Source: Nitrosomonas sp. Nm84 (GTDB taxonomy: Bacteria > Pseudomonadota > Gammaproteobacteria > Burkholderiales > Nitrosomonadaceae). Taken from it: a stretch of 64,000 nucleotides of DNA. Location: positions 62,001 to 126,000 of the forward strand of contig NZ_QJJP01000005.1 in assembly GCF_003201565.1 (NCBI RefSeq). The letters run 5' to 3'. Shown here piece by piece: positions 19,562 to 54,495 of this stretch (position 1 is its first letter; every line of letters begins with the position of its first letter). Both the position numbers and the translations under genes were made by a program. The notes under the pieces are model-generated. The model was not told the DNA's origin, did no database searches, and saw nothing but the letters and a program-made list of their open reading frames with translations.

Positions 19562-19655
19562 ACCCCAAAATCGGCATGTAATTTACCCTGAAACAATATA
19601 TTAAAAGCTGAATAATGATTAAAATGTGCGACTAAAAAAAACTTCAGGGGAAAGT

Positions 19656-26541: not shown

Positions 26542-26991
26542 CTACATAGTTAAAAATACATAAAGAATAATGACGGCAGAAATTGACGTAATGAGTGCGG
26601 CAATGATATTTAATATCGCCGTTTGTCTTGATGCCTGGATTGTGTTGTGAACCTGGCTGAATCCGGAACTTAATTCATGCTTCCATTGTTCTATAATCAC
26701 TCTGGACTGCTCTTCCATTACCCTAGCAACCTCGGCCTTACTTGAGACAATGGAAGAATTCAGTATTCTATCGGAATGATTCTTTGCTTCAATAGACCAT
26801 TGGTCAGAGAACAATTCCATTTGACTCCTGAAATTATCCAACAAATCCTGCTGTGCAGACTTATTCTCTTTAATAAGATAGTCATTCATGGTGTGTAGCA
26901 TCATGATTGGATCGTCTTTGGACAATACAACCCCATGCGCTGAAGCGATTTGCTGAATGACTTCATCAACCTGTTTGCCTGACGGACTCAT
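26542..26991 (-). CDS. traM: TraM-like conjugation protein
   Basis: A 149-residue protein with a coiled helical body and one C-terminal transmembrane segment (about 125-147). It overlaps traL by four bases. In RP4 the gene after traL is traM, of about the same size, with the same C-terminal hydrophobic segment. Its exact role in transfer is not established. Confidence 0.78.
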   Translation of the reverse strand: MSPSGKQVDEVIQQIASAHGVVLSKDDPIMMLHTMNDYLIKENKSAQQDLLDNFRSQMELFSDQWSIEAKNHSDRILNSSIVSSKAEVARVMEEQSRVIIEQWKHELSSGFSQVHNTIQASRQTAILNIIAALITSISAVIILYVFLTM

Positions 26992-30669: not shown

Positions 30670-32543
30670 ATACTTCAAACCATAATTCTGGCGGCCCTGT
30701 GGAAAAAAGGGCGTCACAGGGAAACAACCGGCTGGTTCAGATGATGGCGGTTTTCTTTATGCTCGGTGGAATGCAGGCTGCAACGCAGTTTTTTGCCTAC
30801 CGATTCCAGTATCAACCGCAGCTGGGTGCGCACTTTAATCATATTTATGCGCCGTGGTCGATTATTGACTGGGCAGATCAATGGTATTTCAAGTATCCGG
30901 ACATCTTTGAACTGTCGATGAGTATGGGAGTTGTGTTTTCGGGTGTCGGGCTGATTGTGACGTTGATTGTAAAAATGGTTGCCGATAATTCGGCACGACC
31001 GAACAGTAGCTTACATGGATCAGCGCGGTGGGCGGACCGCACCGATATCCAGGCAGCCCGATTGTTGCCCAAGAAGGACTCGTTTTTTAAGAAGCTATTT
31101 GCCAAGAAATCCCCACAGAATGATTTTGTTTATGTGGGCGCATGGCAGGACGAGCGGGGTGTTACGCACTATCTGAAGCACAATGGGGCGGAACATGTTT
31201 TATGTTATGCGCCGACTCGCTCGGGCAAAGGTGTCGGTCTGGTGATTCCGACACTGCTTTCATGGGGACAGAGTGCCGTTATTACCGATTTGAAGGGGGA
31301 GTTGTGGTCGGTTACAGCCGGTTGGAGAAAGGAGCATGCCGGTAATAAGGTGATTCGCTTTGATCCTGCGTCACCGAAGGGTAGTGCTTGTTGGAATCCA
31401 TTGGATGAAATCCGCATGCAGGATGGTTTTGAAGTAGGTGACGTACAGAATCTTGCGACCTTAATGGTTGATCCGGATGGCCGGGGATTAAATGATCACT
31501 GGCAGAAAACCAGTCAGGCGTTACTGGTGGGTGTGATTCTGCATGTTTTGTATCGATCAAGAAATGAAGGTACTGCCGCTACCTTACCTTATGTTGACGC
31601 CATACTTTCCGATCCTGAGCGCGATATCGGTGAGTTATGGATGGAAATGGCCACCTATCCCCATGTCAACGGACAGAACCATCCGGTCGTAGGCTCCACG
31701 GCACGCGATATGCTGGATCGACCGGGTGAAGAAGCAGGGTCGGTATTATCGAGCGCCAAATCATATTTAACCCTGTACCGCGATCCGCTGGTAGCCAAAA
31801 ATATCAGCCGTTCGGACTTTAGCATCCGTGATTTGATGCACCATGAGCATCCTGTGAGTTTATACATTGTGACGCAGCCCAATGACAAGACGCGGTTGCG
31901 GCCGCTGGTGCGGATCATGGCGAACATGATTGTACGCAAACTGGCCGATCGGCTGGAATTTGAGAATGGGCAGCCGGTCGCGCATTATAAGCACCGATTG
32001 TTGTTAATGCTCGATGAGTTTCCCAGCCTCGGAAAGTTGGAAATCTTCCAGGAATCACTGGCGTATATTGCCGGGTACGGCATTAAAGCTTATTTGGTTT
32101 GTCAGGACATCAATCAGCTTAAAAGTCGTGAAACCGGATACGGACACGATGAAGCGATCAGTTCCAATTGCCATATCCAGAATGCTTTTCCGCCGAACCG
32201 GATTGAGACAGCCGAGCATTTATCCAAATTGACCGGGCAAACCACCGTCATAAAGGAACAGATTACGACCAGTGGGCGACGGGTAGGGATGATGCATGGC
32301 AATGTGACTCGGACTATGCAAGAAATCCAGCGTCCTTTACTCACTCCGGATGAATGTTTACGCATGCTGGGTCCGGAAAAGGATGAAAACGGCAGGATTA
32401 CCAAGGCGGGTGACATGATCATTTATGTGGCGGGTTATCCGGCCATATATGGGAAGCAGCCGTTGTATTTCCAGGATCCTGTGTTCTCGGCGCGCGCGGC
32501 GATTGCTGCGCCTCTTTATAGTGACAAAATCGTCAAGCAATAA
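30666..32543 (+). CDS. traG: TraG/VirD4-type coupling protein
   Basis: A 625-residue type IV coupling protein with two N-terminal transmembrane segments (about 22-42 and 76-100), Walker A APTRSGKGVG (about 181-190), ITDLKGELW and Walker B LLMLDEFPSLG (about 446). It recruits the relaxosome to the channel. Length matches RP4 TraG (635). It overlaps both traI and traF by one to four bases, so the genes are translationally coupled. Confidence 0.96.
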   Translation: MNTSNHNSGGPVEKRASQGNNRLVQMMAVFFMLGGMQAATQFFAYRFQYQPQLGAHFNHIYAPWSIIDWADQWYFKYPDIFELSMSMGVVFSGVGLIVTLIVKMVADNSARPNSSLHGSARWADRTDIQAARLLPKKDSFFKKLFAKKSPQNDFVYVGAWQDERGVTHYLKHNGAEHVLCYAPTRSGKGVGLVIPTLLSWGQSAVITDLKGELWSVTAGWRKEHAGNKVIRFDPASPKGSACWNPLDEIRMQDGFEVGDVQNLATLMVDPDGRGLNDHWQKTSQALLVGVILHVLYRSRNEGTAATLPYVDAILSDPERDIGELWMEMATYPHVNGQNHPVVGSTARDMLDRPGEEAGSVLSSAKSYLTLYRDPLVAKNISRSDFSIRDLMHHEHPVSLYIVTQPNDKTRLRPLVRIMANMIVRKLADRLEFENGQPVAHYKHRLLLMLDEFPSLGKLEIFQESLAYIAGYGIKAYLVCQDINQLKSRETGYGHDEAISSNCHIQNAFPPNRIETAEHLSKLTGQTTVIKEQITTSGRRVGMMHGNVTRTMQEIQRPLLTPDECLRMLGPEKDENGRITKAGDMIIYVAGYPAIYGKQPLYFQDPVFSARAAIAAPLYSDKIVKQ

Positions 32544-33085
32544 TGAAAAAAGGACTCCGTATTCTGGCGGGCATTGTTTTGTCTGTCAGCGCTGGCATAT
32601 TCCTGTTGAGTATTGTTTTTCATGTCAGTGGTATTTATTACAATAATACGCCGAGCTTTCCAGTGGGATTTTACAAGATCATCGATGCGCCGGTAGGGCG
32701 CGGCGCGTATGTTTCCTTTTGTCCGCCGCGGGGTGAAGTTTTTGAGATGGCTATGATGCGAAACACCATTAGCACGGGAAACTGTCCGGGGGGTTATGGG
32801 ATGTTACTGAAGCGTGTTTTTGCGCAAGCGGGGGACAGGGTTTCTATTGGTAGGGCAGGGATCGTTGTTAATGGTGAATTGATGCCCAACAGTGCGCAGA
32901 TCAGCGCGGATGGTGATGGTCATGAAATGCCTCAGTATCGTTTGAAAGAGAAGATGCTTAATGATTCGGAATATCTGCTGATGTCCGATGTCAATCCGAA
33001 TTCATTTGATGCGCGGTATTTTGGGCTGATTGCACATGCGCAGATTCAACATGTGGTTGAGCCGGTTTTTACTTGGAGTGATTAA
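32543..33085 (+). CDS. traF: TraF, conjugative-transfer peptidase (pilin cyclase)
   Basis: A 180-residue signal-peptidase-like protein with one N-terminal membrane segment (about 8-30), a serine region TPSFPVGFY (about 36-44), LLKRVFAQAGD (Lys at about 90), and SFDARYFG near the C-terminus. In RP4 TraF removes the TrbC tail and cyclises the pilin; the trbC gene is at 9.6-10.0 kb. The next RP4 genes (traE, traD, traC) are not present, so the tra cluster is cut here. Confidence 0.92.
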   Translation: MKKGLRILAGIVLSVSAGIFLLSIVFHVSGIYYNNTPSFPVGFYKIIDAPVGRGAYVSFCPPRGEVFEMAMMRNTISTGNCPGGYGMLLKRVFAQAGDRVSIGRAGIVVNGELMPNSAQISADGDGHEMPQYRLKEKMLNDSEYLLMSDVNPNSFDARYFGLIAHAQIQHVVEPVFTWSD

Positions 33086-33767: not shown

Positions 33768-35279
33768 ATGAGCACGAAAATCAATCAGGACGAAATCAAC
33801 AGCGTACTTTGGAAGGCTTGCGATACCTTCCGGGGCGCTGTCGATGCATCAGAATATAAAAACTATATTCTGGTCATGCTGTTTGTGAAATACATCTCTG
33901 ATGTCTGGCAGGAACACTATCAGTCTTTAAAAGAAAAGCACGGTAATGATGAAGAGATGATCTTGCGTCGTATGCAACGTGAGCGATTTGTTTTACCGGA
34001 AGGATGCAGTTTTTTAGGTCTTTATAACCAGCGTAACGAGTCCAATATTGGCGAAATCATCAATATTGCTTTGGAACATATTGAAGAAGCCAATAAACAA
34101 AAGCTCTCGGGTGTATTCAGAAATATTGATTTTAACTCTGAGGCTAATCTTGGTCAGACCAAAGATCGTAATGGCCGCTTAAAGCATTTATTAGAAGATT
34201 TTAACGATACTCGGCTGGATTTAAGCCCTTCCCGTGTGGGCAATTTGGATGTAATTGGTAATGCTTATGAATATCTGATTGCAAAATTTGCTGCCGGTGC
34301 GGGTAAAAAAGCCGGTGAATTTTATACCCCTGCGGAAGTTTCCGAATTGATTGCTGAGCTGGTCAATCCACAAGCGGGTGAGCGTATTTCTGACCCTGCC
34401 TGTGGTTCGGGTTCTTTGCTGATTAAATGCGGAAATCAGCTTTTAAAAAAAGGAACAAAAGACTTTGCCTTGTACGGTCAGGAAATCACCGGTTCCACTT
34501 GGGCATTGGCAAAAATGAATATGTTTTTGCATGGGATGGACAATGCCAGAATCGAATGGGGCGATACCATTCGAAGTCCCAAGCTCATCGAAGACGATAG
34601 CACCATGAAATTTGAAGTAGTGGTTGCCAATCCTCCATTCTCGCTCGATAAATGGGGGCATGATAACGCGGAGAATGATCCGTATAAGCGGTTTTATCGT
34701 GGCCTACCGCCTAGAACCAAGGGTGATTATGCGTTTATCTCGCACATGATCGAAACCACCACCAAAGATTCAGGGAGGGTTGGCGTGGTGGTGCCGCATG
34801 GCGTGTTATTCCGTGGCTCCAGTGAAGGCAAAATTCGCCAGCAACTTATCGAGGAAAACCTGCTCGATGCGGTGATAGGCTTGCCCTCCAATTTGTTTTA
34901 CGGCACCGGCATTCCGGCGGCGGTATTGGTATTCAAACGTAATAAATCGGATAACAATGTGATGTTCATTGATGCCAGCCGGGAATATGGAGATGGCAAA
35001 AACCAGAACAAGCTACGGCAATCGGACATTGATAAGATCGTGGCGACCTATCAAGCACGAGAAAGCGTTGATAAATATGCTTATCTGGCAAGTTTCGACG
35101 AAATCAAAGAGAACGATTTTAACCTCAATATTCCGCGCTATGTTGATACCTTCGAGGAAGAGGAAGAGATTGATATTGATGGGGTGCAGGCAGAAATTGT
35201 TCAGCTTGAGAGTGAACTGGTCGAAGTGAAACAGGAAATGGCTGGATATTTGAAGGAGCTGGGTTATGCATGTTCCTGA
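33768..35279 (+). CDS. hsdM: Type I restriction-modification methylase subunit HsdM
   Basis: A 503-residue N6-adenine methylase. An N-terminal helical HsdM domain (1-130) precedes motif I DPACGSGS (209-216) and motif IV NPPF (288-291). It pairs with HsdS to form the methylase and with HsdR to form the nuclease. Ribosome-binding AAAAGGAAAA precedes the start. Its end overlaps hsdS by 14 bases. Confidence 0.96.
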   Translation: MSTKINQDEINSVLWKACDTFRGAVDASEYKNYILVMLFVKYISDVWQEHYQSLKEKHGNDEEMILRRMQRERFVLPEGCSFLGLYNQRNESNIGEIINIALEHIEEANKQKLSGVFRNIDFNSEANLGQTKDRNGRLKHLLEDFNDTRLDLSPSRVGNLDVIGNAYEYLIAKFAAGAGKKAGEFYTPAEVSELIAELVNPQAGERISDPACGSGSLLIKCGNQLLKKGTKDFALYGQEITGSTWALAKMNMFLHGMDNARIEWGDTIRSPKLIEDDSTMKFEVVVANPPFSLDKWGHDNAENDPYKRFYRGLPPRTKGDYAFISHMIETTTKDSGRVGVVVPHGVLFRGSSEGKIRQQLIEENLLDAVIGLPSNLFYGTGIPAAVLVFKRNKSDNNVMFIDASREYGDGKNQNKLRQSDIDKIVATYQARESVDKYAYLASFDEIKENDFNLNIPRYVDTFEEEEEIDIDGVQAEIVQLESELVEVKQEMAGYLKELGYACS

Positions 35280-36450
35280 AGGGTGGAAATACCAACCAAT
35301 AAAATATTTGTGCGAAAGCATCATCGACTGTGTAAATAAAACTGCTCCAGTAGTTGAATATGAAACACCTTATAAAATGATCCGGACAACTAATGTTAGG
35401 TACGGCAAGGTAGATACACACCACGTACGTTATGTTAAAGAAAAAACCTATTTTAATTGGATACGAAGAGGTGCTCCAAGAAAAGGTGATGTAATATTTA
35501 CACGAGAAGCTCCTGTCGGAGAATCAGGTATATTGGATAGTGAAGATTCTGTATTTCTAGGCCAAAGAACGATGATGTATCGCTCTGACCCTCATGTAAG
35601 TAACAATTTATTTCTTCTTTATTCCCTACAAACACGTTTCTGCCAGAAACAGATTGAAAATTTCAGTAATGGTGGAACTGTAGCCCACATGCGAGTACCA
35701 GATTGTGGTGAAATTATTTTAAGGGTTCCTCCCCTGCCAGAACAACATAAAATCGTCCAAATCCTCTCCACCTGGGACAAAGCCATTGAAAAACTGGAAT
35801 GCCTAATTACCGCCAAGAAAAAGCGCAAAAAAGCCCTGATGCAGCAGCTTTTGACTGGGAAGAAACGGTTTGTTGGGTTTGAGGGGGAGTGGAGGAAAAT
35901 TGAGCTAGGAAAACTCTTGGACTATAAACAGCCAACCTCTTTTTTAGTTAAATCAACTAAATATTCTGACGAGTATCCAACGCCTGTTCTTACTGCTGGT
36001 AAAACTTTTGTCTTAGGCCGTACAAATGAAGATTTTGGAATATATCAAGAAGATTTACCTGTGATCATTTTTGATGACTTCACGACTGCAAGTAAGTTTG
36101 TAGACTTTTCCTTTAAAGCTAAATCTAGTGCAATGAAAATTTTGACTGCAAAAAAGGGTGTTTCCATTAAATATATTTTCGAGGCAATGCAAATACTAAA
36201 TCACCCAATTGGAGGTCATCAACGGCATTGGATTTCGATTTACTCAAATCTTATTATTAGCTTGCCAAAATTAGAAGAGCAACAAAAAATAGCTGCCATC
36301 CTTTCCGCCGCCGATAAAGAAATCGAAAATCACCAAAAACAACTATCTACCCTGAAAGAGCAAAAAAAGGGCCTGATGCAACAACTTTTGACCGGCAAGA
36401 AACGGGTCAAAATAGATGAATCTGAAAAGATGGCAGCAGTGAAAGCGTAA
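35266..36450 (+). CDS. hsdS: Type I specificity subunit HsdS
   Basis: A 394-residue protein with two target-recognition domains (about 1-150 and 205-350), each followed by a conserved coiled-coil helix: LPEQHKIVQILSTWDKAIEKLE (quoted in part) and LEEQQKIAAILSAADKEIE, each ending in QQLLTGKKR. The two halves each contact one part of a bipartite DNA site. Both are intact, so the enzyme should be functional. Confidence 0.94.
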   Translation: MHVPEGWKYQPIKYLCESIIDCVNKTAPVVEYETPYKMIRTTNVRYGKVDTHHVRYVKEKTYFNWIRRGAPRKGDVIFTREAPVGESGILDSEDSVFLGQRTMMYRSDPHVSNNLFLLYSLQTRFCQKQIENFSNGGTVAHMRVPDCGEIILRVPPLPEQHKIVQILSTWDKAIEKLECLITAKKKRKKALMQQLLTGKKRFVGFEGEWRKIELGKLLDYKQPTSFLVKSTKYSDEYPTPVLTAGKTFVLGRTNEDFGIYQEDLPVIIFDDFTTASKFVDFSFKAKSSAMKILTAKKGVSIKYIFEAMQILNHPIGGHQRHWISIYSNLIISLPKLEEQQKIAAILSAADKEIENHQKQLSTLKEQKKGLMQQLLTGKKRVKIDESEKMAAVKA

Positions 36451-36452
36451 TC

Positions 36453-39400
36453 ATGGCCGCACATGATTATCTGGAAGATTTATCCTCTCTATTGCCCGCC
36501 ATTACTTTGCTGGAGAAGCTGGGATTTACTTATCTCACCCCTTCAGAAAACCTAACCTTGCGGGATGGCAGAACGTCCAAGCTGATCTTGGAAAGCGTTT
36601 TGCGAGAACAACTCCAGAAATTCAACACCATCACCTTTAAAGGCAAACAATACCCCTTCAGTGACGGCAATATCCAAAAAGCGGTGCAGGCCTTGGCAGG
36701 CATTCCTTTTGATAGTCTGATGAATACCAGTGAGCAGGTTTACGATCTGCTCACCTTGGGTAAAAGCCTGGAACAGACCATTGACGGTTATACCAAAAGT
36801 TTTTCCCTGCACTACATTGACTGGAAGCACCCAGAAAACAATGTCTATCACGTCTGCGATGAATTTGTGCTGGAGCGCCGCAACAGCAAGCTGACCCGAA
36901 GACCGGATATTGTCCTGTTTGTGAACGGCATTCCCCTGGCGGTAATTGAATGTAAACGGCCAGATCTTAAAAATGCGGTTGAAGAAGGCATCAGCCAGCA
37001 TTTGCGCAATCAGCGCAGCGATGAAATTCCGGAGTTGTTCACCTATTCACAAATCCTGTTATCAGTCAGCCAGAATAAAGCCCAGTATGGCACAACCGGC
37101 ACACCCGCCAAATTTTGGGCAGGCTGGAAGGAAGAAAACAAGGACGAACATGAAAGGCAGTTACATGAATTAGTTAATATGCCAGCCAGTTCGGAATTCA
37201 AAGCCCGCCTCTTTACCGAACGCGATGAACGGCAGCGTCGGTATATGGAAACAGTCTGGCAATCTGGTGAGCGCCATCCCTCTCCGCAGGACAAAGCACT
37301 TCATAGCCTAGTTAAGCCCGAGCGATTGTTAGAGCTGATCTATCAATACATTGTCTTTGATAATAAAGAAAAGAAGATCTGCCGATACCAACAATATTTT
37401 GCTGTTGCTGCAACGCTTGAGCGGATCGCACACAGAAAAGGTGATAGCCAAAGGCCGGGTGGCGTGATCTGGCATACAACTGGTTCGGGCAAGTCTTTAA
37501 CCATGGTTATGTTAGCCAAAGCGCTTGCATTGTCTCCTGAGATTCTCAATCCCAAAATTGTTCTGGTTACAGACCGGGTTGATCTGGATGATCAGATTTA
37601 TAAAACCTTCCATGCTTGTGGCAAAGATGTAGTACAGGCCAAAAGCGGCGAACATTTAATTGACCTGATCGCCCATAACAAAGCCAACATCATCACCACG
37701 ATTATTGATAAGTTTGAATCGGCCAGCCGTAAACGCAAAATCAGCGATGAAAGCAGCAATATCTTTGTGTTGGTCGATGAATCCCATCGCTCTCAATACG
37801 GCGTATCTCATGCCAAAATGCAAAATGTATTTCCGAATGCCTGCTATATCGGTTTTACCGGCACACCACTCCTCAAGAAAGAAAAAGCCACTGCCACGAA
37901 ATTCGGCGGCTTTATACATAAATACACCATGAATCAGGCGGTAGCCGATGGCGCTGTCACGCCTTTACTTTATGAAGGCCGGATGAGTGAGCTGCATGGC
38001 GATCAAGCCCAGATTGATAAATGGTTTGAGCGTATTACCAAAGACCTGACCACAGAACAGAAAGCGGATTTGAAGAATAAATTCCGTCGTGAGGAAGAAC
38101 TGAGTAAAGCCGAACAACGTTTGGGTGAGATTGCCTATGATATTGGTCAGCATTTCAAGAATAATTTCAGAAACATTGGAAAGAAAGGCCAGTTTGCTGT
38201 TTCCAGCAAAGCAATGGCTTTGCGCTATAAAAAATATTTTGATGAGTTTGGCGATGTAACGGCGGAAGTGGTGATTTCGCCACCAGATACACGGGAAGGT
38301 AATAAAACGGTCGATGAAGACACCCTGGAAGAAGTGCAAGTCTTTTGGAAGTCGATGATGGCCAGATATGGCAATGATGAAAAATACCAGCAAAGCATCA
38401 TAAATGCCTTTAAATATTCCCCTGATGATCCAGAAATACTCATTGTGGTGGATAAGCTGCTCACTGGATTTGATGCCCCCAGAAACAGCGTACTTTATCT
38501 GGATAAGCGCTTGAAGGAGCATAGCATCCTACAAGCCATTGCCCGTGTAAACCGCTTGTTTGAAGGCAAGGATTATGGCTTGATTATTGATTACCGGGGA
38601 ATTTTTGGCGAACTGAATGCCGCCATTGATACTTATGCGGCACTTGAAAACGAAGGATTTGATCCAGAAGATATCGAAGGCACGCTGACCGATATTTCCG
38701 AAGAAATTAAGTTGTTGCCGCAACGTCACACCAATGTTTGGGAAGTATTCAAAGAGGTTGAAAATCAGAAGGATTTGGAAGCCATGCAACGCCATTTGGA
38801 ACCGGAAGATCGGCGCCAGCGTTTTTATGAAGCATTAGCTTTGTTTGCTAAAACCCTACAATTGGCGCTGGCCAATGCCAGGTTTCAGGATGAAACACCG
38901 GAAAACAAAATTGCCCGTTATAAGGATGATCTGAAACATTTCTTAAATCTCCGCCAGGCCGTAAAACAACGCTATGGCGAAGCGGTTGATTATTCATCCT
39001 ATGAAAAGCAAATCCGCAATATGGTGAATAAATATATTGGGGCGGATGCAGTCAAACAACTGATCGAGCCCGTCAATGTATTTGCCATCGACGAATTTGA
39101 AAAAGAAATTGAATCCATTGACGGTGACGCTGCTAAGGCTGATGCCATTGCCTCACGGGTTAAGAAAACCATCACCGAGAAGATGGAAGAAGATCCTGCC
39201 TTGTATAAACGCTTGTCTGAGCTGATTGATGAAGCCATAGCCGAACATCGAGCAAAACGGCTTTCTGATATGGAATATCTGGAGAGAGTTCGCAGGACTT
39301 TGAATGAGTTACGTGGAAAAGAGAGTTCTGATCTTCCAGATATTTTAAATCATCGTGATGAGGCCAAGGCCTATTATGGTGTTATTCAAGCGCCGATGTC

Positions 39401-39647
39401 TGGTTTTAGTGTGCCCGGTTATTCGTCTGAGAATCTTGCAGCAGAAACCGCCGTGCGGTTAGAAGACATTATCCGCGATCATAAAATCCGTGACTGGACT
39501 AAGAACCAAGACGTTAAAAATCTGATGATGAACGAGATTGAAGATTATCTCTACAGTCTTAAAGGCCGTTATGAATTAGCAATGGGTATGGACATGATTG
39601 AGCAAATCACCTGTCAAGTGATGGCAATCGCTGAGCGTCGTGGGTGA
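36453..39647 (+). CDS. hsdR: Type I restriction subunit HsdR
   Basis: A 1064-residue translocase/nuclease: PD-(D/E)xK-type nuclease (PDIVLFVNGIPLAVIECK; Asp152, Glu166, Lys168), Walker A TTGSGKS (about 341-348), DESH box (about 439), and a helicase C-terminal part with LLTGFDAP and QAIARVNR. The frame is intact. It starts two bases after hsdS. Confidence 0.96.
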   Translation: MAAHDYLEDLSSLLPAITLLEKLGFTYLTPSENLTLRDGRTSKLILESVLREQLQKFNTITFKGKQYPFSDGNIQKAVQALAGIPFDSLMNTSEQVYDLLTLGKSLEQTIDGYTKSFSLHYIDWKHPENNVYHVCDEFVLERRNSKLTRRPDIVLFVNGIPLAVIECKRPDLKNAVEEGISQHLRNQRSDEIPELFTYSQILLSVSQNKAQYGTTGTPAKFWAGWKEENKDEHERQLHELVNMPASSEFKARLFTERDERQRRYMETVWQSGERHPSPQDKALHSLVKPERLLELIYQYIVFDNKEKKICRYQQYFAVAATLERIAHRKGDSQRPGGVIWHTTGSGKSLTMVMLAKALALSPEILNPKIVLVTDRVDLDDQIYKTFHACGKDVVQAKSGEHLIDLIAHNKANIITTIIDKFESASRKRKISDESSNIFVLVDESHRSQYGVSHAKMQNVFPNACYIGFTGTPLLKKEKATATKFGGFIHKYTMNQAVADGAVTPLLYEGRMSELHGDQAQIDKWFERITKDLTTEQKADLKNKFRREEELSKAEQRLGEIAYDIGQHFKNNFRNIGKKGQFAVSSKAMALRYKKYFDEFGDVTAEVVISPPDTREGNKTVDEDTLEEVQVFWKSMMARYGNDEKYQQSIINAFKYSPDDPEILIVVDKLLTGFDAPRNSVLYLDKRLKEHSILQAIARVNRLFEGKDYGLIIDYRGIFGELNAAIDTYAALENEGFDPEDIEGTLTDISEEIKLLPQRHTNVWEVFKEVENQKDLEAMQRHLEPEDRRQRFYEALALFAKTLQLALANARFQDETPENKIARYKDDLKHFLNLRQAVKQRYGEAVDYSSYEKQIRNMVNKYIGADAVKQLIEPVNVFAIDEFEKEIESIDGDAAKADAIASRVKKTITEKMEEDPALYKRLSELIDEAIAEHRAKRLSDMEYLERVRRTLNELRGKESSDLPDILNHRDEAKAYYGVIQAPMSGFSVPGYSSENLAAETAVRLEDIIRDHKIRDWTKNQDVKNLMMNEIEDYLYSLKGRYELAMGMDMIEQITCQVMAIAERRG

Positions 39648-40426
39648 TTGGCACGATGAATGGTTCTTTGATGATGAAAGATAATAATGAAAAAGAAAGC
39701 CAAGGCAAGCAACGTTCTGTTTTCTTTGGTCAAACAGAAATTATCTATGTCGTTAATTTTTGTGAACGTACGACATTAGCCATTCATGTTTATCCGGATG
39801 GCAAGGTGATGGTTGATGCACCCATCTCAGCCAATGAGCAAGCTATTGCAGATAGAGTTAAGAAAAGAGCGCCCTGGATATTTAAGCAAAAATTGAAGTT
39901 TGAATCCTATCCTCCTGCTCTTTCTCAACGGCAATACGTTTCAGGAGAAACACACCGTTATTTAGGGCGACAATACCGACTGAAGGTGGTGGAAGGAAAG
40001 AATGAGAGCGTCAAACTTTTGTATGGCCAATTATTCATAGAAACAAACAATCCAGAAAACCGATTGCGTGTAAAAACGCTTTTGCAGCAATGGTATCGCT
40101 TGAGAGCCAGAGTGGTATTTTCAGAACGTTATGAATTTTGTACTCAGGAGGTCGCTAAAGTTGGTATTGAGCATGATCAAAGCATCCATCTTCGCTTTAT
40201 GCCTAAACGGTGGGGAAGCTGTACAGGTAAAGGCAATATTATTCTGAACCCCGAACTGATCGCGGCTCCGAAAGATTGTATTGATTATGTGATTACGCAT
40301 GAGCTTTGTCACCTGAAAGAGCGTAACCACAGCCAGGTGTTTTATAAATTACTGACTGCCGTGATGAAGGATTGGGTATTGAGGCGTAAGCGGCTCAATG
40401 AAATGGTTGAGGTTAGGTTTGTTTAA
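39644..40426 (+). CDS. YgjP-like zinc metallopeptidase linked to the type I system
   Basis: A 260-residue protein with the metal site HELCH (219-223) and a third His at 229, preceded by MPKRWGSCTGKGNI, the hallmark of YgjP/DUF45 (M48-like) proteins. The start (GTG, overlapping the hsdR stop in GTGA; an ATG lies at 39656) shows translational coupling. Such genes are a recurring partner of type I restriction operons; their role is not settled, and turnover of the restriction complex is one idea. Confidence 0.88.
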   Translation: MIGTMNGSLMMKDNNEKESQGKQRSVFFGQTEIIYVVNFCERTTLAIHVYPDGKVMVDAPISANEQAIADRVKKRAPWIFKQKLKFESYPPALSQRQYVSGETHRYLGRQYRLKVVEGKNESVKLLYGQLFIETNNPENRLRVKTLLQQWYRLRARVVFSERYEFCTQEVAKVGIEHDQSIHLRFMPKRWGSCTGKGNIILNPELIAAPKDCIDYVITHELCHLKERNHSQVFYKLLTAVMKDWVLRRKRLNEMVEVRFV

Positions 40427-44299: not shown

Positions 44300-47113
44300 C
44301 TAATTCTTAGTATTGATAAGATACCTAATTAAATTATGTGTGTCATTAACTATTTTTGTTAATACTTGCGTAGATAATTGATGGTTGAAATGATCCAGAA
44401 TATAATTCAAGGTATTAAGTGCAGAAAATCTTTCTCCTATCTGACAGAGAAAATAGCCTTTATTGTACAGAGCTTTAGCCACAATTTCTTGCAAATTGGT
44501 ATGTTGTGCACTTGCATATTCTTCCATGATCTGATCGTAACAATTAATTCCTTCCTTGATTTTATTTTGTTGACAGAGAACATTGCCTCTATTAAAAAGT
44601 GCATTGGCAACTTGTATCTGTAGACTAAAAGCTGGGTTAGATTGAAATCGCTGAAGGACCTTATTATAGAATCTAATTGCCGTTTTAGTTTGCTTTAGAC
44701 TTAGATATGCATTACCCTTATTAACTAGTGCTTTAGCTACAGATTCCTGCAAATCCTCTTCCCTTGAGTCTTTAAAATTCCGTATGATCATGTTATAGAA
44801 TTTGATTGCTTTCTTGGGAAGGTCTTGCTGATGAAAAATATATCCTTTTTCAATATGTATCTTTGCAACATATTCTTGTAGACTAGGTTCTTTTGTATTA
44901 CCTAAATACTTTAAGACTTTATTAAAAATACCAAGAGCCTGATCAAATTCATTTAACTGTATAAAGGTTATGCCACTGTTATAAAGTGCTAAGGAAAAGT
45001 GTTTTTTATATCCGGGAATATGCTTGTTTTTTGTAATGTATTGACAAACATCGTTGATGAAATCAAATCCTTTTTGATATTCTTTTTTATGAAAGAATAT
45101 TCTTGCTAGAGCATTCAATGCAGTAGCTACTTGTTCTTGCAAATCAGGTTCTTTATTATCCTCGAAGTGCTCTACAAGTTTTGCATAGCATTTTATTGCG
45201 TTACCAGTTTCATCTAGCTCTTCAAACGCTTTCCCTTTGCCAATAAGTGCTTCGGTTATTTGAACCTGCATTCCGATTTTTTGTGTGTTATTTTGATACT
45301 GTACAACATCTTCATAACAATCTATCGCTTCGCGAAAACGACATTTATTAACCAAAGCAAGGCCTTTATTATTAAGAGCTATCGCAATTTGTTCTTGGAG
45401 CAAAAAGCTGTTTGTATTAATGAAGCGATTGATGACTTCATCATAACAATCTATTGCTAGTTGAAATTCATGGCTTAATGCAAATGCACTGCCTTTATTT
45501 ATGTAAGTTATTACAATCAATATCTCGGAAAATGGATATTGGGCATATGCATAACGCTGTATTACAGTGTCATAGCATTTTATAGCTTCGTCTATTTGCA
45601 TTAAATTTCTTAGAAAAAGGCCTTTGTTGGATAAAGCCTTGGCCACATATTCCTGAAAAACTGATCCTTTCTTATCACCGAAAAGCTTCACGAGGTAGTC
45701 ATAGCACTCAATTGCTTCATTGATTCGATTGAGTTCAAAAAGTGTGGTGCCTTTATTAAAAAGCGCAATAATAACCTGCTCCTGCATAACAAGTTCCTGT
45801 GAATCCAAGAAATTATTTGCTATTTCTTCCCAGAGCATTACAGCAGAGTTCATGTTGTTATAAAAGCGAAGTGCATATGCGAGTTGATTAAGACCTACTA
45901 TATCGCTATGTTTCGTTAGACTTTCTGCCAGTCTTTCCATGTCCGTTTGTAAGCTGCGGCCTTCTGGATAATAAAATTCACTTTCAGGTTTATTAATATA
46001 AGCAGCCTCTGGAATGATAGGATCTACATCTCTTGGAGACTTGATAAAGCCATTATTGACCAAAGTGTTCAAGCAGGCACGTGTTTTTGCTATATCAATG
46101 TTTTCTTCATTATGATCGAATATATCTTTAAGAACTGTTCTTATTCGTTGATGTGTTAAAGGTTTTATGAATGCAGCATACAACAATATGATTGAGCGTA
46201 AGCAGTTCTTTTCCAGGTCATTCATATGAAAAGCAAAGCGTATATGCATAAATTCAAAATGCTTATGCATACAGATTGAGCCGAGAGTCGGAAATTCGCG
46301 TGTTTCCGTTTCTCCGATGGCTCTCTTTAATTCTTCTTTTTGATCCTTTCCTGCAGGTTTTAATGTTAATTTGTGGTCAAATAACTGATAAAAATTATGC
46401 AATTGTCCTGTATTTGAAATAGCATCTTTAAGCTCTGGTCCATTTCGGCATGTTGCAGCTAGTACACATTGCTTTGTAATTTGCTTCAGGCGACTAAATA
46501 GATTATTTAAATCATGCGTATTGCTGTTGTAGTCACTAAGATCATCAAACAGCCACAGCACTTTCCTTCCTTCGAGCAACCTTAATGCCTCATCACTGGG
46601 CGATTTATTTGTAAGTAACTGAATAACTAAAAAATCATTTAATTTGCGCGTAACTTCGAATAAAGTGCGAGTTTTGCCCTCGGTTGGATTGCCGATTAAA
46701 AGTATGCTGGAGTCTTGCTCGAGTAAGTAGGCTAGATCTTGTTCGTCATAGAATGCGTTATTTTCAGAGATTGTGTCGTACGGAATTGCCTTGCGATTAA
46801 TATACGTAATGAAGTAGGGGCGATCCGAATTGTTAAGTTTTTCACCAGGTTGAGTCTCTCTAAACTGAAAATCTGCCGGTGTTAAGTGACTGGTTTCCTT
46901 AATTAACCGGTATTCATTCTCAAGTTCTTTTTGCGTTAGATTTTTTAAATGATCTTTACTAAATAAGGCAAATAGTGTTATGAAAAATAGAGTAAAACTA
47001 AAAACGATTGAGTCATTGAATAAATCTTTTGTGTGCTCTGCGAAATGAGTGATAAATAACCCGGAAAAAAATATTCCCCAAAAAATATAGAGTATGTTTT
47101 TAGTTATTTTCAT
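44300..47113 (-). CDS. Membrane-anchored P-loop (STAND-like) ATPase with about eleven TPR repeats
   Basis: A 937-residue protein. Two N-terminal transmembrane helices (about 7-25 and 35-52), a P-loop NTPase (Walker A GNPTEGKT at 141-148, Walker B KVLWLFDD at 184-191, then CVLAATCRNGPE), a winged-helix-like segment (about 290-370) and about eleven tetratricopeptide repeats from residue 430 to 920 (pattern ALxNKGxxLxxLxxxxEAIxCYDxV). STAND-type NTPases with repeat sensors act as switches in bacterial antiphage defence and signalling. The upstream gene on the same strand encodes a proteasome-like protein, a likely effector or partner. Function is inferred from architecture; the specific system is not one I recognise. 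Confidence 0.8.
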   Translation of the reverse strand: MKITKNILYIFWGIFFSGLFITHFAEHTKDLFNDSIVFSFTLFFITLFALFSKDHLKNLTQKELENEYRLIKETSHLTPADFQFRETQPGEKLNNSDRPYFITYINRKAIPYDTISENNAFYDEQDLAYLLEQDSSILLIGNPTEGKTRTLFEVTRKLNDFLVIQLLTNKSPSDEALRLLEGRKVLWLFDDLSDYNSNTHDLNNLFSRLKQITKQCVLAATCRNGPELKDAISNTGQLHNFYQLFDHKLTLKPAGKDQKEELKRAIGETETREFPTLGSICMHKHFEFMHIRFAFHMNDLEKNCLRSIILLYAAFIKPLTHQRIRTVLKDIFDHNEENIDIAKTRACLNTLVNNGFIKSPRDVDPIIPEAAYINKPESEFYYPEGRSLQTDMERLAESLTKHSDIVGLNQLAYALRFYNNMNSAVMLWEEIANNFLDSQELVMQEQVIIALFNKGTTLFELNRINEAIECYDYLVKLFGDKKGSVFQEYVAKALSNKGLFLRNLMQIDEAIKCYDTVIQRYAYAQYPFSEILIVITYINKGSAFALSHEFQLAIDCYDEVINRFINTNSFLLQEQIAIALNNKGLALVNKCRFREAIDCYEDVVQYQNNTQKIGMQVQITEALIGKGKAFEELDETGNAIKCYAKLVEHFEDNKEPDLQEQVATALNALARIFFHKKEYQKGFDFINDVCQYITKNKHIPGYKKHFSLALYNSGITFIQLNEFDQALGIFNKVLKYLGNTKEPSLQEYVAKIHIEKGYIFHQQDLPKKAIKFYNMIIRNFKDSREEDLQESVAKALVNKGNAYLSLKQTKTAIRFYNKVLQRFQSNPAFSLQIQVANALFNRGNVLCQQNKIKEGINCYDQIMEEYASAQHTNLQEIVAKALYNKGYFLCQIGERFSALNTLNYILDHFNHQLSTQVLTKIVNDTHNLIRYLINTKN

Positions 47114-47133
47114 TAAAAATTAATAAGACAGAT

Positions 47134-47169
47134 AAACAATGGATTATTTATCCAAATAATCCATTGTTT
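47134..47169. terminator. 16-bp perfect hairpin between the two genes of the candidate system
   Basis: AAACAATGGATTATTT pairs perfectly with AAATAATCCATTGTTT across a four-base loop. A T-run follows on the plus strand; on the minus strand the tail is weaker (TTTATC). It lies 21 bases upstream of the TPR gene and may attenuate read-through from the Ntn-like gene. Confidence 0.65.
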
Positions 47170-47259
47170 TTTAGACTGATGTCGTACTGCAGTGAAAATG
47201 GCGGCCTGATTTGAAAAAAATACACTCCACTTTTTTATGCTCTCCATATTTTCTTGACG

Positions 47260-48198
47260 TTATTTGTTTCTGGTGACGATATCTTTTTTAAAAATACCTT
47301 CTTTAAACGTAGTGTAAACGGATGGTTTGTCTATTGCGAAACTACCACTTTCTGAGACTTCATCTATCGTTTTATTGAGGAATTTATATAATGCGTCACC
47401 AGGTGATACCTTTGTGTTTAGTGCATCCTCAAAGTGTTTTTGTGCCTTATCCTCAAATTGTTTCCGCATTCCTATAACAGCCACTTTGTTTTCTAATATT
47501 TTTTCACCCTTTACGAATACTTCTAGCATTCCATCTACTAATTTTTTATCCATTCTATAAACATATAATTGGTGTTGATTAGTTGCAGGACAATGGACGC
47601 CAGCAATGAATTCTGTGTGCATATTCTTAATCGATTCAGGTGTTAATTGATACTTTCTTGCAGAAGATATTGCTTTATTAATTGAGTACTCAATAATGTC
47701 TAATATATATTCTGCAGTAAGAATCTTGTCGTAATGACGATCAAGAAACATCTCAGTGCTCCAAGTCATATTTTGGGCACTCTTTAAAATATTTTCCTGA
47801 CAATGCATTTGAACAATATACTTTCCAGGTTCATCACTATTTGGCCCGTATTGATAACTAATCTGTAGCTTGCTAAGATGTTCTGTAATGTTATTTAAAA
47901 CGTGACTTGCGATAAGTGTGCTTCCCGCAAATGCAATAAAGCAATTTGATTCAAGGTAAACTTCAAAATAGTCGCGGAATTCTTCACGAACAAAATAAGG
48001 TTTCCATAGTTTTATCGCGACTGGATGTATCTTTCGAAGCCCACTAAGTATTGGCGTAACACCATTTGAGCCCATTACGGTTATTACAGAATCAGCAACA
48101 GCAAATAGTCCATCTACTCCTAGCTCTGATTCCATATCACCCCAAACTTTACTCCAGGGATCTTCTTTAATTTCGTATCCTGCAATGATTAGTGTCAT
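47260..48198 (-). CDS. Proteasome-like (Ntn-hydrolase-like) protein
   Basis: A 312-residue protein beginning MTLIIAGYEI. Thr2 would become the N-terminal nucleophile after Met removal. GLFAVADSVIT (Asp36) resembles the Asp17 segment of proteasome beta subunits and HslV, LRKIHPV (Lys56) the Lys33 segment, and FIAFAGSTLIASHV (about 88-101) the Gly47-helix segment. Spacings are larger than in HslV, so insertions would be needed. Such a protein could be a protease; it lies 146 bases upstream of the P-loop/TPR gene on the same strand. The fold is a by-eye proposal. Confidence 0.6.
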   Translation of the reverse strand: MTLIIAGYEIKEDPWSKVWGDMESELGVDGLFAVADSVITVMGSNGVTPILSGLRKIHPVAIKLWKPYFVREEFRDYFEVYLESNCFIAFAGSTLIASHVLNNITEHLSKLQISYQYGPNSDEPGKYIVQMHCQENILKSAQNMTWSTEMFLDRHYDKILTAEYILDIIEYSINKAISSARKYQLTPESIKNMHTEFIAGVHCPATNQHQLYVYRMDKKLVDGMLEVFVKGEKILENKVAVIGMRKQFEDKAQKHFEDALNTKVSPGDALYKFLNKTIDEVSESGSFAIDKPSVYTTFKEGIFKKDIVTRNK

Positions 48199-50788: not shown

Positions 50789-51220
50789 TCATAAATCAGA
50801 ACTTCTTTGAATAACGCCCAAGGCCTTAACGCGATCTAACAGATCATTAGTCAAAGTAATCAGTTCTTTAAGTAATTGTGCATCAATATCCATATGCCCT
50901 TCATACTCGGCAAGGTTACGGCGGCGATGGCATTGATCCAATACCCGACATTTATCATTTTCCAACCCGACGGTATGCTGCAAGCATTGAAAAACAATAT
51001 AGCGCTTATCAGAGCGATAGCCGTGCCAACGTAGAGCAGCCAAAGCCAATGCATGTGCCGCTCCATAAGCCAAAGAAAATTGACTATCTAATGACAAACC
51101 TTGCAGCTTGACATCCTGCAATTTAGTGGTGGCTGCCAATACCATACCATCAAACTCCACTTGGTTGGGCGGCTCACGATTAAGCGCTTTTATGGTAACG
51201 AGATTATCTAATGCTTCCAT
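50789..51220 (-). CDS. HEPN-domain protein (toxin half of an MNT/HEPN pair)
   Basis: A 143-residue all-helical protein with SLAYGAAHALALAALRWHGYR and the C-terminal RRRNLAEYEG, a variant of the HEPN RxxxxH-type active motif (R-N-x-A-E-Y). HEPN proteins of this kind are RNA-targeting toxins controlled by a nucleotidyltransferase partner. It lies three bases downstream of that partner. Confidence 0.82.
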   Translation of the reverse strand: MEALDNLVTIKALNREPPNQVEFDGMVLAATTKLQDVKLQGLSLDSQFSLAYGAAHALALAALRWHGYRSDKRYIVFQCLQHTVGLENDKCRVLDQCHRRRNLAEYEGHMDIDAQLLKELITLTNDLLDRVKALGVIQRSSDL

Positions 51221-51223
51221 TAA

Positions 51224-51829
51224 CTACTCGCCTTTCATTCCTACTGTTATGTAATCGCCCATCAACCACAGCTTGGGTTGTTCCATAACACGTGTAATAA
51301 AAGGCTGATGATTATTTTTCCGGTCAGTAAATTCTGCAACCGTATACACGGTCGGATTAATGGTCCTGCCCAGTTGTTTTTCTGCGGGTGCTAAAAGCCC
51401 CATTATTTCGCTATAACTCACATTATCACCAATCAACATCAGATCAATGTCACTAGCTGCGTGCTCGGTGCCTTGGGCTATCGAGCCATAAATAAAAGCA
51501 CTGCTTAGTTGTGGCAACAGCGGCGCTAAAGCTGTCTTGATAATATCCACGACCCCAAACGTTTTTTGAGTAATTGCCTTTAATTCATTAAAGATCGGAT
51601 TATCTGCATTAGCCTGGTAATGGTTCTGGTTACCTTGGCGAGACACCGTCAGCAGGCCAGCCGAACATAATTTTTCTAGCTCTCGATTCACAGAACCCTT
51701 ACCTACAGCGGCTAGCCGCACGATCTCGTTTAAATAATAGGTTCGCTCGGGTTTGCCATACAGCAAACCCAATACTCGTCGTTGGGTTTTGGTAAACAGG
51801 GCATCACCAATAGCAGAACTGCTCATCAC
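51224..51829 (-). CDS. MNT nucleotidyltransferase with N-terminal winged HTH (antitoxin half)
   Basis: A 201-residue protein. An N-terminal winged helix (about 10-70; RTYYLNEIVRLAAVGKGSVNRELEKL, cut) precedes a minimal nucleotidyltransferase domain with YGSIAQGT (114-121) and SDIDLML (126-132; Asp127, Asp129). MNT antitoxins modify HEPN toxins; the fused HTH suggests that it also regulates the operon. Confidence 0.85.
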   Translation of the reverse strand: MMSSSAIGDALFTKTQRRVLGLLYGKPERTYYLNEIVRLAAVGKGSVNRELEKLCSAGLLTVSRQGNQNHYQANADNPIFNELKAITQKTFGVVDIIKTALAPLLPQLSSAFIYGSIAQGTEHAASDIDLMLIGDNVSYSEIMGLLAPAEKQLGRTINPTVYTVAEFTDRKNNHQPFITRVMEQPKLWLMGDYITVGMKGE

Positions 51830-51836
51830 TTACCTA

Positions 51837-52463
51837 TCAAAAAGTCCCATTATGAGTACTATAGACCCCTTTTTGAGACTTATCAAGAGAGTTTATGCTT
51901 CTGTCATGGCTCATGCCAGTGAAATTGGTCCATATTCGATGTCCCAGCTCATCGAGGTGATGGTTCTCATCGACCGCAAGATGCAATTTACGCCAAGTGC
52001 GCCGGGCCGCAACGTCATGCTTTTCCTGGTGCCAGTCGTCCTTGCCGTAAACCTTGAGACCGGTTGAATCAACAATAACAAGACTACCCGGTTCCATCGC
52101 TTTGGTTAGGGTATGCTGAGGTAACTTAATGCTGCGCCTGGACAGGCTACTGAAGTCAGGAATGGTGATGTCAACTTTCATGATACCGGCAAGCGAGTTC
52201 ATGAAACCTTCGGTTTGACGTAAGGGCAGATGAAAGACCTGGCGGATAAATAGAGCTGTTTCTATGGCGAGATTAGAATATTCCTGCGGCCTGCCTCGAG
52301 CTCCCGTTCTGGTGGGGCGCCACTCAGCAATTGCCGCTTCCGTAAACCAAATCGTGATATCACCCCGTCGCCGCAATCCGTTGTTATACTCATGCCAGTT
52401 CGTCACTTTATAACGAGATTCTTCGATCTTATGACGGCGACTTTCGTTGTGTTTATAAGGCAT
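51837..52463 (-). pseudogene. IS5-family transposase, truncated
   Basis: A 208-residue frame matching the N-terminal two thirds of an IS5-type transposase (NWHEYNNGLRRRGDITIWF; FHLPLRQTEGFMNSLAGIM; LVIVDSTGLKVYG, holding the first catalytic Asp; WRKLHLAVDENHH). After DENHH the family similarity stops and an unrelated 40-residue tail follows, so the 3' part was lost by rearrangement eight bases from the MNT gene. Confidence 0.85.
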
Positions 52464-52553
52464 TGGCTTCTCTGCAGGTGAAATCCTGCAGAATTATGCC
52501 AGATGTGCCATCTTTTTACCGACAGTTCGATTTATTCAACAACGCCAGTCAAT

Positions 52554-52768
52554 ATGAGTCTACGCAAAGTCAGCAAAAGCCGTGGATCGTTTCCTAACGA
52601 TGAAGCTGTGATCAAATTGTTCTATTTGGCACTCATTCAATATCGCCAAAAAATGGTCTATGCCACTAAGAGATTGCAAACCTGCACTCAATAGGTTTAC
52701 TATCCAATTTAAAGAAAGAATGCCTCGGCATTATTAACCGCCGTTTACACAAAATCAAGGACACCCTC
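52554..52768 (+). pseudogene. IS256-family element, 3' fragment with right terminal repeat
   Basis: The last part of an IS256-family transposase is visible (SLRKVSKSRGSFPNDEAVIKL), but the frame slips at CAAAAAATGG (about 52648); in the shifted frame it continues KWSMPLRD ... LNRFTIQFKERMP and stops at about 52736. A terminal repeat follows (52741-52768) whose complement GAGGGTGTCCTTGATTTTGT resembles the left end at 19110. This is a relic of the same IS type. Confidence 0.8.
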
Positions 52769-52800
52769 CGTTTCGGCATGATCCTGGCTAAAAGTTATTT

Positions 52801-54495
52801 TTAGGCTGTATCTTTTTTTAGTAACAGAGGAATACCTTTTCTTTTCGTATTTAAAAACCATTTTGTGACATCATCTAAGAAAGCCCATACATCAGCATCT
52901 GTTGGTTTCCTATAGCTTTCGATATCAGGATCCTCTCCCATTTTTTCGAAAATCTCAACCAACCAATCAGGTCCATGCTTTTCCACTTTTAAATCACTTA
53001 ACCACGACTCTAATTCACCAATAGGAACAACAAATAGACCATAATCTTTTAGTTTATTGAGTAAATTATTAAATGCTTCTCTATCCCCATTCTCTAATAT
53101 TGTTTCTCCTCCGTCTGTTTTCATGTCTTTTCCTGTCTCATCGAACTTTTTCTTAATTAACGTTCTTAGCGTTGCCAACGATTCTAATTCCATACTTGGA
53201 ATAAAGGCAGAATCCAGAAAGCTGGTCCATACTTTACCGCCTTCTTTTATGATATCGATATCTACGATTCCCGCAACTGGAATACCAATTTCACGAAGAG
53301 GCTTTATGATTGTTTTAATAGTCTGTTTATTTTGCGCATGCAAAAATAAACAATTAGGAATTCCTCTATTATCATCTTGAAGTAGTCGTTCATTTATTTC
53401 TTGATAAAATGCTCTGTCAGTATCCGATTCGGTGACAATGACAAATTCATAAAATAATCCATTTAAAACCCCAGTAGATCTAAGTAAAGGATTTCTCATT
53501 AATTTCAAAATATCTTGATTAGGTAAAACTTTTGCGGTAGAAACATTATCACGGTGTGTTAACCTAACTATATTGACTTGCGCTCCTGATTGAATACAAC
53601 CCATCACAAAGCTTGAACTGTGAGTTGAAACTAATAATCTTTTTTGTGAAATGGTACTAAGTCTAGATATTTCTTTACCTAATTTAAATGATAAAGCTGG
53701 ATGCAAAAATGCTTCAGGCTCATCTATCAATAAAATTGATGGATCACCAGCAAGAATTTCGATGAGCATTCCGGTAAATGCTTTTACCCCATCACTTGAT
53801 TGACTAATCGGCGAAGCTTTTGAGTGAAATTCAACAGCTTCAGCATGAATTCCTCTTTCTTCCATATCATCTTTAGGAGGTATTAAAGATAATTTTAATT
53901 TTAACATCCCAAGTTCTGTTGGATCGACTACAAGATAATGACCAAAAGCCTCATAAACAATTTTTCGAACTTGTTTCCTCAATTCATCTTGGCGAAAAAG
54001 AATTTGAAAGCTTGTTTGCGGTTCACTTTGCAAGTTACCCGCGTGTTGATCCTCTATTAATTCAATTCTATTTTTACCATTTAGTAGCAATGTCTTATAT
54101 TTCAAATAATACATACATGCAACTATAGAATTACCGCTATCATTTGGTTTTAATAAACTATCTTTCAAACTATTCTGACCGATTACGAGTTTGTCTCCTT
54201 TTTTTCCAACAAAAATATTATCAACTTCTAAAACGTCATCTGTTTCAGGCTTCAAAATAATACTTTGAATAATTGCATCAATTTCATTAATATTTATTTC
54301 ATTTAATTCAATATTATCAATAATAAAGTTATTAGCATTTTTACGTCCATTGTTACAGAATTGGTAAATCTCAGATAAAACCTTACTTTTACCTGAATTG
54401 TTCGGCCCAACAAAAATAGTGATTGGAGTAACGTCGATTGTCGTTTTATTTATTTCGCTAGTAGTGCCAAATTTTATTTTTATATTGCTTATCAT
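52801..54495 (-). CDS. OLD-family nuclease (ABC-type ATPase plus TOPRIM)
   Basis: A 564-residue protein with Walker A GPNNSGKS (30-37), a signature-like SQSSDGVKAF, Walker B ILLIDEPEAFLHP (about 250), a D-loop/His switch (LLVSTHSSSF), and a TOPRIM start VIVTESDTDRAF (about 348). OLD-type nucleases are known in antiphage defence (P2 Old, GajA of Gabija). No UvrD-like helicase or reverse transcriptase lies beside it, so it would be a stand-alone OLD enzyme. Confidence 0.88.
   Translation of the reverse strand: MISNIKIKFGTTSEINKTTIDVTPITIFVGPNNSGKSKVLSEIYQFCNNGRKNANNFIIDNIELNEININEIDAIIQSIILKPETDDVLEVDNIFVGKKGDKLVIGQNSLKDSLLKPNDSGNSIVACMYYLKYKTLLLNGKNRIELIEDQHAGNLQSEPQTSFQILFRQDELRKQVRKIVYEAFGHYLVVDPTELGMLKLKLSLIPPKDDMEERGIHAEAVEFHSKASPISQSSDGVKAFTGMLIEILAGDPSILLIDEPEAFLHPALSFKLGKEISRLSTISQKRLLVSTHSSSFVMGCIQSGAQVNIVRLTHRDNVSTAKVLPNQDILKLMRNPLLRSTGVLNGLFYEFVIVTESDTDRAFYQEINERLLQDDNRGIPNCLFLHAQNKQTIKTIIKPLREIGIPVAGIVDIDIIKEGGKVWTSFLDSAFIPSMELESLATLRTLIKKKFDETGKDMKTDGGETILENGDREAFNNLLNKLKDYGLFVVPIGELESWLSDLKVEKHGPDWLVEIFEKMGEDPDIESYRKPTDADVWAFLDDVTKWFLNTKRKGIPLLLKKDTA

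What the first reader, a model, noticed from the sequence alone, without database searches (positions are those of the whole stretch)
44300..48198. Candidate two-gene system: proteasome-like protein plus membrane-anchored STAND-like/TPR switch
Two same-strand genes sit between an ISKra4 element and other defence-type genes. One encodes two transmembrane helices, a P-loop NTPase (GNPTEGKT, Walker B LFDD) and about eleven TPRs. The other starts with Met-Thr and carries ADS, RKIHP and AFAGS segments in the order of the Thr1, Asp17, Lys33 and Gly47 regions of proteasome beta/HslV proteins. A sensor/switch paired with a self-compartmentalising or N-terminal-nucleophile protease would be an unusual defence or signalling unit.
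Basis: partly seen in the sequence, partly recalled or inferred. Interest (0 to 1): 0.78.

Follow-up and report, generated by a model that had tools for sequence, protein, structure and literature searches.

The report
Mobile proteasome-like protein, possible phage defence
A gene in this bacterium encodes a relative of the proteasome's cutting subunit, found repeatedly on viruses, plasmids and other mobile DNA, which suggests it may be a stand-alone weapon or shield in fights between mobile elements; the neighbouring switch-like gene does not appear to be its partner.

The parts
47260..48198 (-). 312-aa proteasome-like Ntn-hydrolase; Thr2 (nucleophile if Met1 is removed), Asp36 (= Asp17), Lys56 (= Lys33), Gly92 (= Gly47 region)
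   Evidence: residue equivalences are from conserved motifs and their order; the structural alignment output gives only end points (in several rows model residue 2 to chain residue 1)
47947..48018 (-). family hallmark (about residues 61-84): about 18-22 extra residues between the Lys33-like and Gly47-like positions, predicted mostly as beta strands
   Evidence: K-to-G distance 36-40 in 12 of 12 members, against about 15 in the HslV and 18 in the Anbu sequences printed there; DSSP of the model
47716..47871 (-). second insertion (about residues 110-161) between predicted helices 94-109 and 162-181
   Evidence: DSSP of the model; block pLDDT 66-83 over residues 111-160
44300..47113 (-). 937-aa protein: two hydrophobic N-terminal segments, P-loop NTPase (GNPTEGKT, LFDD), TPR array; judged a separate solo gene, not a partner
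47134..47169 (-). 16-pair inverted repeat with 4-base loop between the two genes (terminator-like or operator-like); not seen by eye upstream of the TPR relative
   Evidence: L022 upstream sequence read
33768..40426 (+). Type I R-M (HsdM, HsdS, HsdR) and YgjP-like metallopeptidase: left side of the defence-type island
50789..54495 (-). right side: PADLOC candidate pair PDC-M05B/PDC-M05A, a transposase ORF, and an OLD-like ATPase-TOPRIM protein
29062..33085 (+). conjugation genes (TraI-type relaxase, TraG-type coupling protein, S26 peptidase): the island looks like cargo of a conjugative element
   Evidence: TraM activator and ParA-like at 26542-27722

Best explanation
The 312-aa gene is a stand-alone cargo gene of mobile elements. 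It encodes a threonine Ntn-hydrolase of the proteasome-like family. Met1 is removed by methionine aminopeptidase, so Thr2 becomes the free N-terminal nucleophile, with Asp36 and Lys56 as the triad and Gly92 in the oxyanion region; no propeptide is needed. Two family-specific insertions beside the active site probably restrict it to particular protein substrates. It most likely serves its mobile element by exclusion or defence: cleaving a phage protein, or a host protein in response to infection. The adjacent membrane-anchored NTPase-TPR gene is a separate, independently mobile gene of the same island. Shown: gene, conserved residues, mobile contexts, no conserved partner in the sample. Supported by prediction: fold and catalytic set. 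Inferred: Met removal, protease activity, defence role and target.
Against: No experiment. The window protein and L015 have no PADLOC match. No relative in 50,697 phage records with two protein queries or, at DNA level with two queries, in E. coli genomes. Six of the eight mobile loci came from collections of plasmids or viral contigs, which biases the count; of the six loci from genome collections (window, L002/L013, L003, L011, L012, L071) two are clearly on mobile elements. The Thalassospira (L013) and Methylotenera (L011) copies sit among chromosomal-type genes. Only one locus is in the P2-like hotspot. Sequence alone does not link the family to HslV/Anbu: hhalign probability 0.6-2.4; the best PDB hit of the six-sequence profile was a TNFAIP8-like protein (E 0.0045, profile 95-206), and the only weak family hits of the window protein were unrelated (DUF3226 E 0.055, DUF818 E 0.079, an amidase model E 0.14).
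Confidence: 0.5

Rival explanations
1. Two-gene switch: the membrane NTPase-TPR protein senses infection and activates the adjacent Ntn protease.
For: Adjacent, same strand, 146-bp gap, in a defence-type island; some NTPase-protease pairs exist in known immune systems (recalled).
Against: No TPR relative among the ORFs of the other 11 Ntn loci; the one TPR relative is in a genome without the Ntn gene; 16-pair stem-loop between them; no hit of the TPR protein in plasmids at 1e-10 or, by its first 441 residues, in viral contigs.
Confidence: 0.06
2. An element-benefit protease unrelated to phage defence: protein quality control, or cleavage of a repressor, antitoxin or anti-restriction target in the lysogeny/SOS programme.
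For: L017 lies about 2 kb downstream of an S24-type repressor gene; L011 lies directly after an S24-peptidase gene and a umuC-like ORF (the latter by eye) with an SRAP gene behind it; the uncapped proteasome clears unstructured proteins (PMC8665760, Discussion).
Against: Contexts vary from locus to locus with no shared target gene seen; the P2-like hotspot and R-M/defence-island loci fit defence better.
Confidence: 0.25
3. A specific protein ligase or single-site processing enzyme (connectase-like), perhaps monomeric, modifying a host or phage protein.
For: Constant insertion between the Lys33 and Gly47 positions, which I take to be the S3/S4 site where connectase carries its signature insertion (PMC8665760; equivalence of sites inferred).
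Against: Connectase lacks helices H1/H2; the model has helices 94-109 and 162-181 in their place. The insertion here is predicted as strands, not helices.
Confidence: 0.13
4. A non-catalytic structural or decoy relative of the proteasome.
For: Proteasome alpha subunits are catalytically inactive (PMC8665760).
Against: Thr, Asp, Lys and Gly are invariant in 12 of 12.
Confidence: 0.03

Closest known systems
Anbu (ancestral beta subunit)
   Different: About 18 extra residues between Lys and Gly and a 50-residue insertion between the first two helices; Anbu's MTYC start is not shared; hhalign against 12 Anbu sequences not significant
20S proteasome beta subunit / HslV
   Same: Fold and catalytic set
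   Different: No PF00227 match listed up to E 1; 312-339 aa against about 173 for mature HslV; no HslU-like neighbour; the genome has its own PF00227 protein of HslV size on another contig
The 22 proteasome-like subfamilies of Fuchs, Alva and Lupas 2021 (PMC8665760; abstract, introduction, methods, results and discussion read; figures and supplements not seen), incl. PPH and AAH carried by phages and PMI-5/PMI-6 with an S3/S4 insertion
   Same: Small, patchy prokaryotic families, function unknown, some moved by phages
   Different: Cannot be compared: sequences of their representatives could not be fetched; this family may be one of them (GPH, PMI-5, RPC and DPH are candidates by taxonomy) or an additional one
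PHROG phrog_25719
   Same: Matches 5 of 5 members scanned (E 2.4e-29 to 1.3e-55)
   Different: Listed only as unknown function; the Ntn assignment is new relative to that entry
nSTAND / TPR membrane switches (for the neighbour gene)
   Same: P-loop, Walker B-like LFDD, TPRs, N-terminal hydrophobic pair
   Different: nSTAND3 below its cut-off; only marginal PADLOC matches (E 0.0056 and 0.0033)

Membership tests
Proteasome-like family (Ntn clan) | Proteasome-type Ntn fold | tested here: met
   Predicted, not solved: two AF2 models, rows shown proteasome/Anbu; second model has low confidence (pLDDT 59.3)
Proteasome-like family (Ntn clan) | Thr1/Ser1, Asp17, Lys33 triad and Gly47 | tested here: met
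   Invariant in 12 of 12; order kept, exact T1-D17-K33 in 2 of 12
Proteasome-like family (Ntn clan) | Sequence-profile link to known members | tested here: inconclusive
   hhalign probability 0.6-2.4 with small alignments; weak phrog_1040 match for L005 only
Proteasome-like family (Ntn clan) | Hydrolase or ligase activity from the N-terminal Thr | not testable with these tools
   -
Pfam PF00227 (Proteasome) | Score over the curated cut-off | tested here: not met
   Not among matches up to E 1 for the window protein
HslV | HslV family model match and adjacent HslU | tested here: not met
   No HslV match in NCBIfam or Pfam; no HslU-like gene beside it
Anbu | Anbu sequence profile | tested here: inconclusive
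   hhalign against 12 Anbu sequences: probability 0.6, a weak test; structure close
Connectase | No H1/H2; two-helix S3/S4 insertion | tested here: not met
   Model has helices 94-109 and 162-181; insertion predicted as strands
Fuchs 2021 subfamilies (GPH, PMI-5, RPC, DPH and others) | Clustering with the representative sequences | not testable with these tools
   Representative accessions read, sequences not available
Anti-phage defence system | Protection against phage | not testable with these tools
   Only context evidence
Anti-phage defence system | Match to a catalogued system (PADLOC-DB 2.0.0) | tested here: not met
   0 families for the window protein and for L015; other members not scanned
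Two-gene Ntn + TPR-NTPase system | Conserved adjacency | tested here: not met
   0 of 11 other Ntn loci; TPR relative in a genome without Ntn gene
nSTAND3 (PF20720) | Score over the curated cut-off | tested here: not met
   21.0 bits against 27.2

The most novel reading that the evidence does not exclude
A previously unrecognised proteasome-family threonine protease that works alone as an anti-phage or inter-element exclusion factor, spread by phages, plasmids and conjugative elements: a proteasome relative recruited into bacterial immunity without an unfoldase partner.
Probability: 0.35. Interest if true: 0.82.

Novelty: new variant of a known kind. Interest (0 to 1): 0.55.

Why it matters
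Many proteasome-like proteins of unknown function are known in bacteria and phages, and PMC8665760 (Discussion) reports no genomic contexts suggestive of a specific function. This family offers one: mobile cargo, including a published antiviral hotspot. If it protects against phages, the proteasome fold joins the toolkit of bacterial immunity, and single-gene members give a direct test of what unfoldase-free proteasome relatives do.

Tried and rejected
Two-gene unit: rejected. The first scan of genome contigs with the single protein found nothing; the three-row alignment A3 found three loci. L018 was dropped before all counts: its match lies inside a tape-measure-like ORF, judged by eye. Phage records gave no match; E. 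coli genomes gave no DNA match; the viral structure library gave no match at E<=1e-3. Profile comparison with HslV/Anbu: scores 19.4 (12 Anbu of 14 loci fetched), 18.2 (11 HslV of 30 loci, those passing my motif pattern) and 24.4 (both pooled), for a 10-member family alignment, against a maximum of 22.05 in 60 comparisons of 30 column-shuffled alignments; the shuffles were run against the separate sets only, not the pooled one, so the pooled score has no control. PDB sequence searches gave no proteasome hit (best a TNFAIP8-like protein, E 0.0045). The TPR protein N-terminus gave no viral relative and no PDB hit below E 0.18. No tRNA in the window. Literature: searches returned no paper; some searches listed 1, 3 and 1 papers, none with a title on such a defence protein; I looked at passages of the one (PMC12345140), which concerns hslUV expression only, and saw the others as listings. 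Searches were listings used to find PMC8665760. The library holds no bioRxiv preprints and few subscription papers. Proteasome residue numbering beyond what PMC8665760 states, and the names ISKra4 and P4-like, are recalled or taken from the finding. RNA-family, tandem-repeat and composition tools were not run.
Full report
What is there. The window (contig G000:C5, 62001-126000) carries, on the minus strand, a 937-aa ORF at 44300-47113 and a 312-aa ORF at 47260-48198. The host is most likely a Nitrosomonas: G737, a genome of the same genus, holds a locus (L023) identical over its 3933 bases to L012, recorded as Nitrosomonas sp. Nm33. The island looks like cargo of a conjugative element: relaxase, coupling protein and S26 peptidase at 29.1-33.1 kb, TraM- and ParA-like at 26.5-27.7 kb. 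It holds a Type ISP R-M gene in two overlapping ORFs, a Type I R-M system, and the PADLOC candidates PDC-M05A/B with an OLD-like protein.

The 312-aa family. The protein has no significant Pfam, NCBIfam or PADLOC match (the weak unrelated hits are told in the Against line) but belongs to phrog_25719, unknown function (E 8.4e-52). Relatives came from the genus (L012), other Proteobacteria (Methylotenera L011, Thalassospira L002/L013, unnamed L003 and L071), plasmids (18 of 72,556 records: one Vibrio, one Acinetobacter, and 16 of Leclercia, Enterobacter, Citrobacter, Raoultella and Klebsiella, of which the two looked at are typed IncHI2A and one is split by an insertion sequence), and viral contigs (L014, L015, L017). 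L005 and L014 are near-identical (97% at DNA level). It is rare: 3 of 299 phylum genomes, 2 of 369 class, 2 of 149 relatives, 1 of 318 in Thalassospira's class, 2 of 379 in the order, 1 of 250 in the order of G031; these samples overlap and each count includes an already known carrier.

Catalytic set. In a 12-sequence alignment 15 columns are invariant: M1 T2 G7 F32 D36 S37 T40 G53 K56 P67 F74 G92 S179 G243 P292. T2, D36, K56 and G92 take the places of Thr1, Asp17, Lys33 and Gly47 as named in PMC8665760; G243 may be the later glycine of proteasome beta subunits (recalled). In the members with the shortest loops (L005, L014) the spacing is exactly T1-D17-K33. The Lys-Gly distance is 36-40 in 12 of 12, against about 15 and 18 in the HslV and Anbu sequences printed: a constant insertion. 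The Met-Thr start is the first start codon of the frame in the window, L002, L011, L012 and L071 and the annotated start in L004-L006; L015 and L017 have possible earlier starts, and L003 needs a TTG start, so the N-terminal Thr is inferred there; L014 begins at the edge of the stretch held.

Contexts. L015: the order is portal (PF04860), a cll match, a PD-Lambda-2_C/Beta_protein match, the Ntn gene, gpA (PF05840), with an integrase-like ORF further on (by eye). PMC9122126 (passages) describes the gpA-gpQ interval of P2-like phages as a hotspot of antiviral systems that holds old and tin in P2; PMC9519451 (passages) reports that PD-lambda-2C is needed for defence against lambda-vir. A PTS gene of host type lies close behind the portal-like gene, so this prophage may be incomplete. 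L017: about 2 kb downstream of an S24-type repressor, with a nuclease-like and an SH3-like gene between. L014: at the contig edge of a Mu-like prophage. L003: next to a TrwB-type coupling protein and about 3 kb from a TrwC relaxase. L005: plasmid, about 3 kb from helicase and methyltransferase genes. L012: near a Zot-domain ORF. L011: after an S24-peptidase gene and a umuC-like ORF, before an SRAP gene. L013 and L071: no clear mobile signature read. So 8 of 12 loci are clearly mobile (window, L003-L006, L014, L015, L017), with the sampling bias told in the Against line.

The neighbour. The 937-aa protein has TPRs, a P-loop and Walker B-like motif conserved in its relative, and two hydrophobic N-terminal segments. 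Of 61 genomes searched two match, the window's own and G653 (52% over residues 1-564). In G653 the gene lies 450 bases after an integrase gene, and that genome has no Ntn homologue. A BLAST of the protein against the ORFs of every locus held found no other relative. A 16-pair stem-loop lies between the two window genes. It is therefore best seen as a second, independent cargo gene.

Verdict. The pairing was not supported. What remains is a compact, mobile proteasome-like family of unknown function with a context that points to exclusion or defence. It is a new variant of a known kind, because proteasome-like families of unknown function, some in phages, are already in print (PMC8665760), and whether this is one of them could not be tested here.

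Noticed in passing
window 48986-50185 (+): 399-aa protein with an N-terminal CPKC...CENC zinc-ribbon-like start (by eye) and no significant Pfam, NCBIfam or PADLOC match; divergent neighbour of the Ntn gene, possibly another cargo gene.
   Followed up: partly
window 19626-24576 (+): Type ISP restriction-modification gene present as two overlapping ORFs that match successive parts of one profile, so it looks interrupted.
   Followed up: no
window 50789-51829 (-): Pair matching PADLOC candidates PDC-M05A (nucleotidyltransferase-like) and PDC-M05B, with a transposase ORF beside it.
   Followed up: no
window 52801-54495 (-): OLD-like ATPase-TOPRIM protein.
   Followed up: no
window 47134-47169: 16-pair inverted repeat with a 4-base loop just before the TPR gene start; not obvious upstream of the relative in L022.
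   Followed up: partly
L015 3279-4944: A cll match and a PD-Lambda-2_C match in the same gpA-portal interval as the Ntn gene.
   Followed up: yes
L007 8001-10136: IncHI2A plasmid copy of the Ntn gene split by an annotated ISEc33 element; intact copies exist on sister plasmids.
   Followed up: no
L022 7731-16339: Island with an integrase, the TPR/NTPase relative and a large 955-aa ORF in a Nitrosomonas relative.
   Followed up: partly
L017 6745-7908: 387-aa protein with a weak C-terminal SH3-like match directly before the Ntn gene in the phage contig; no counterpart noticed at other loci.
   Followed up: no
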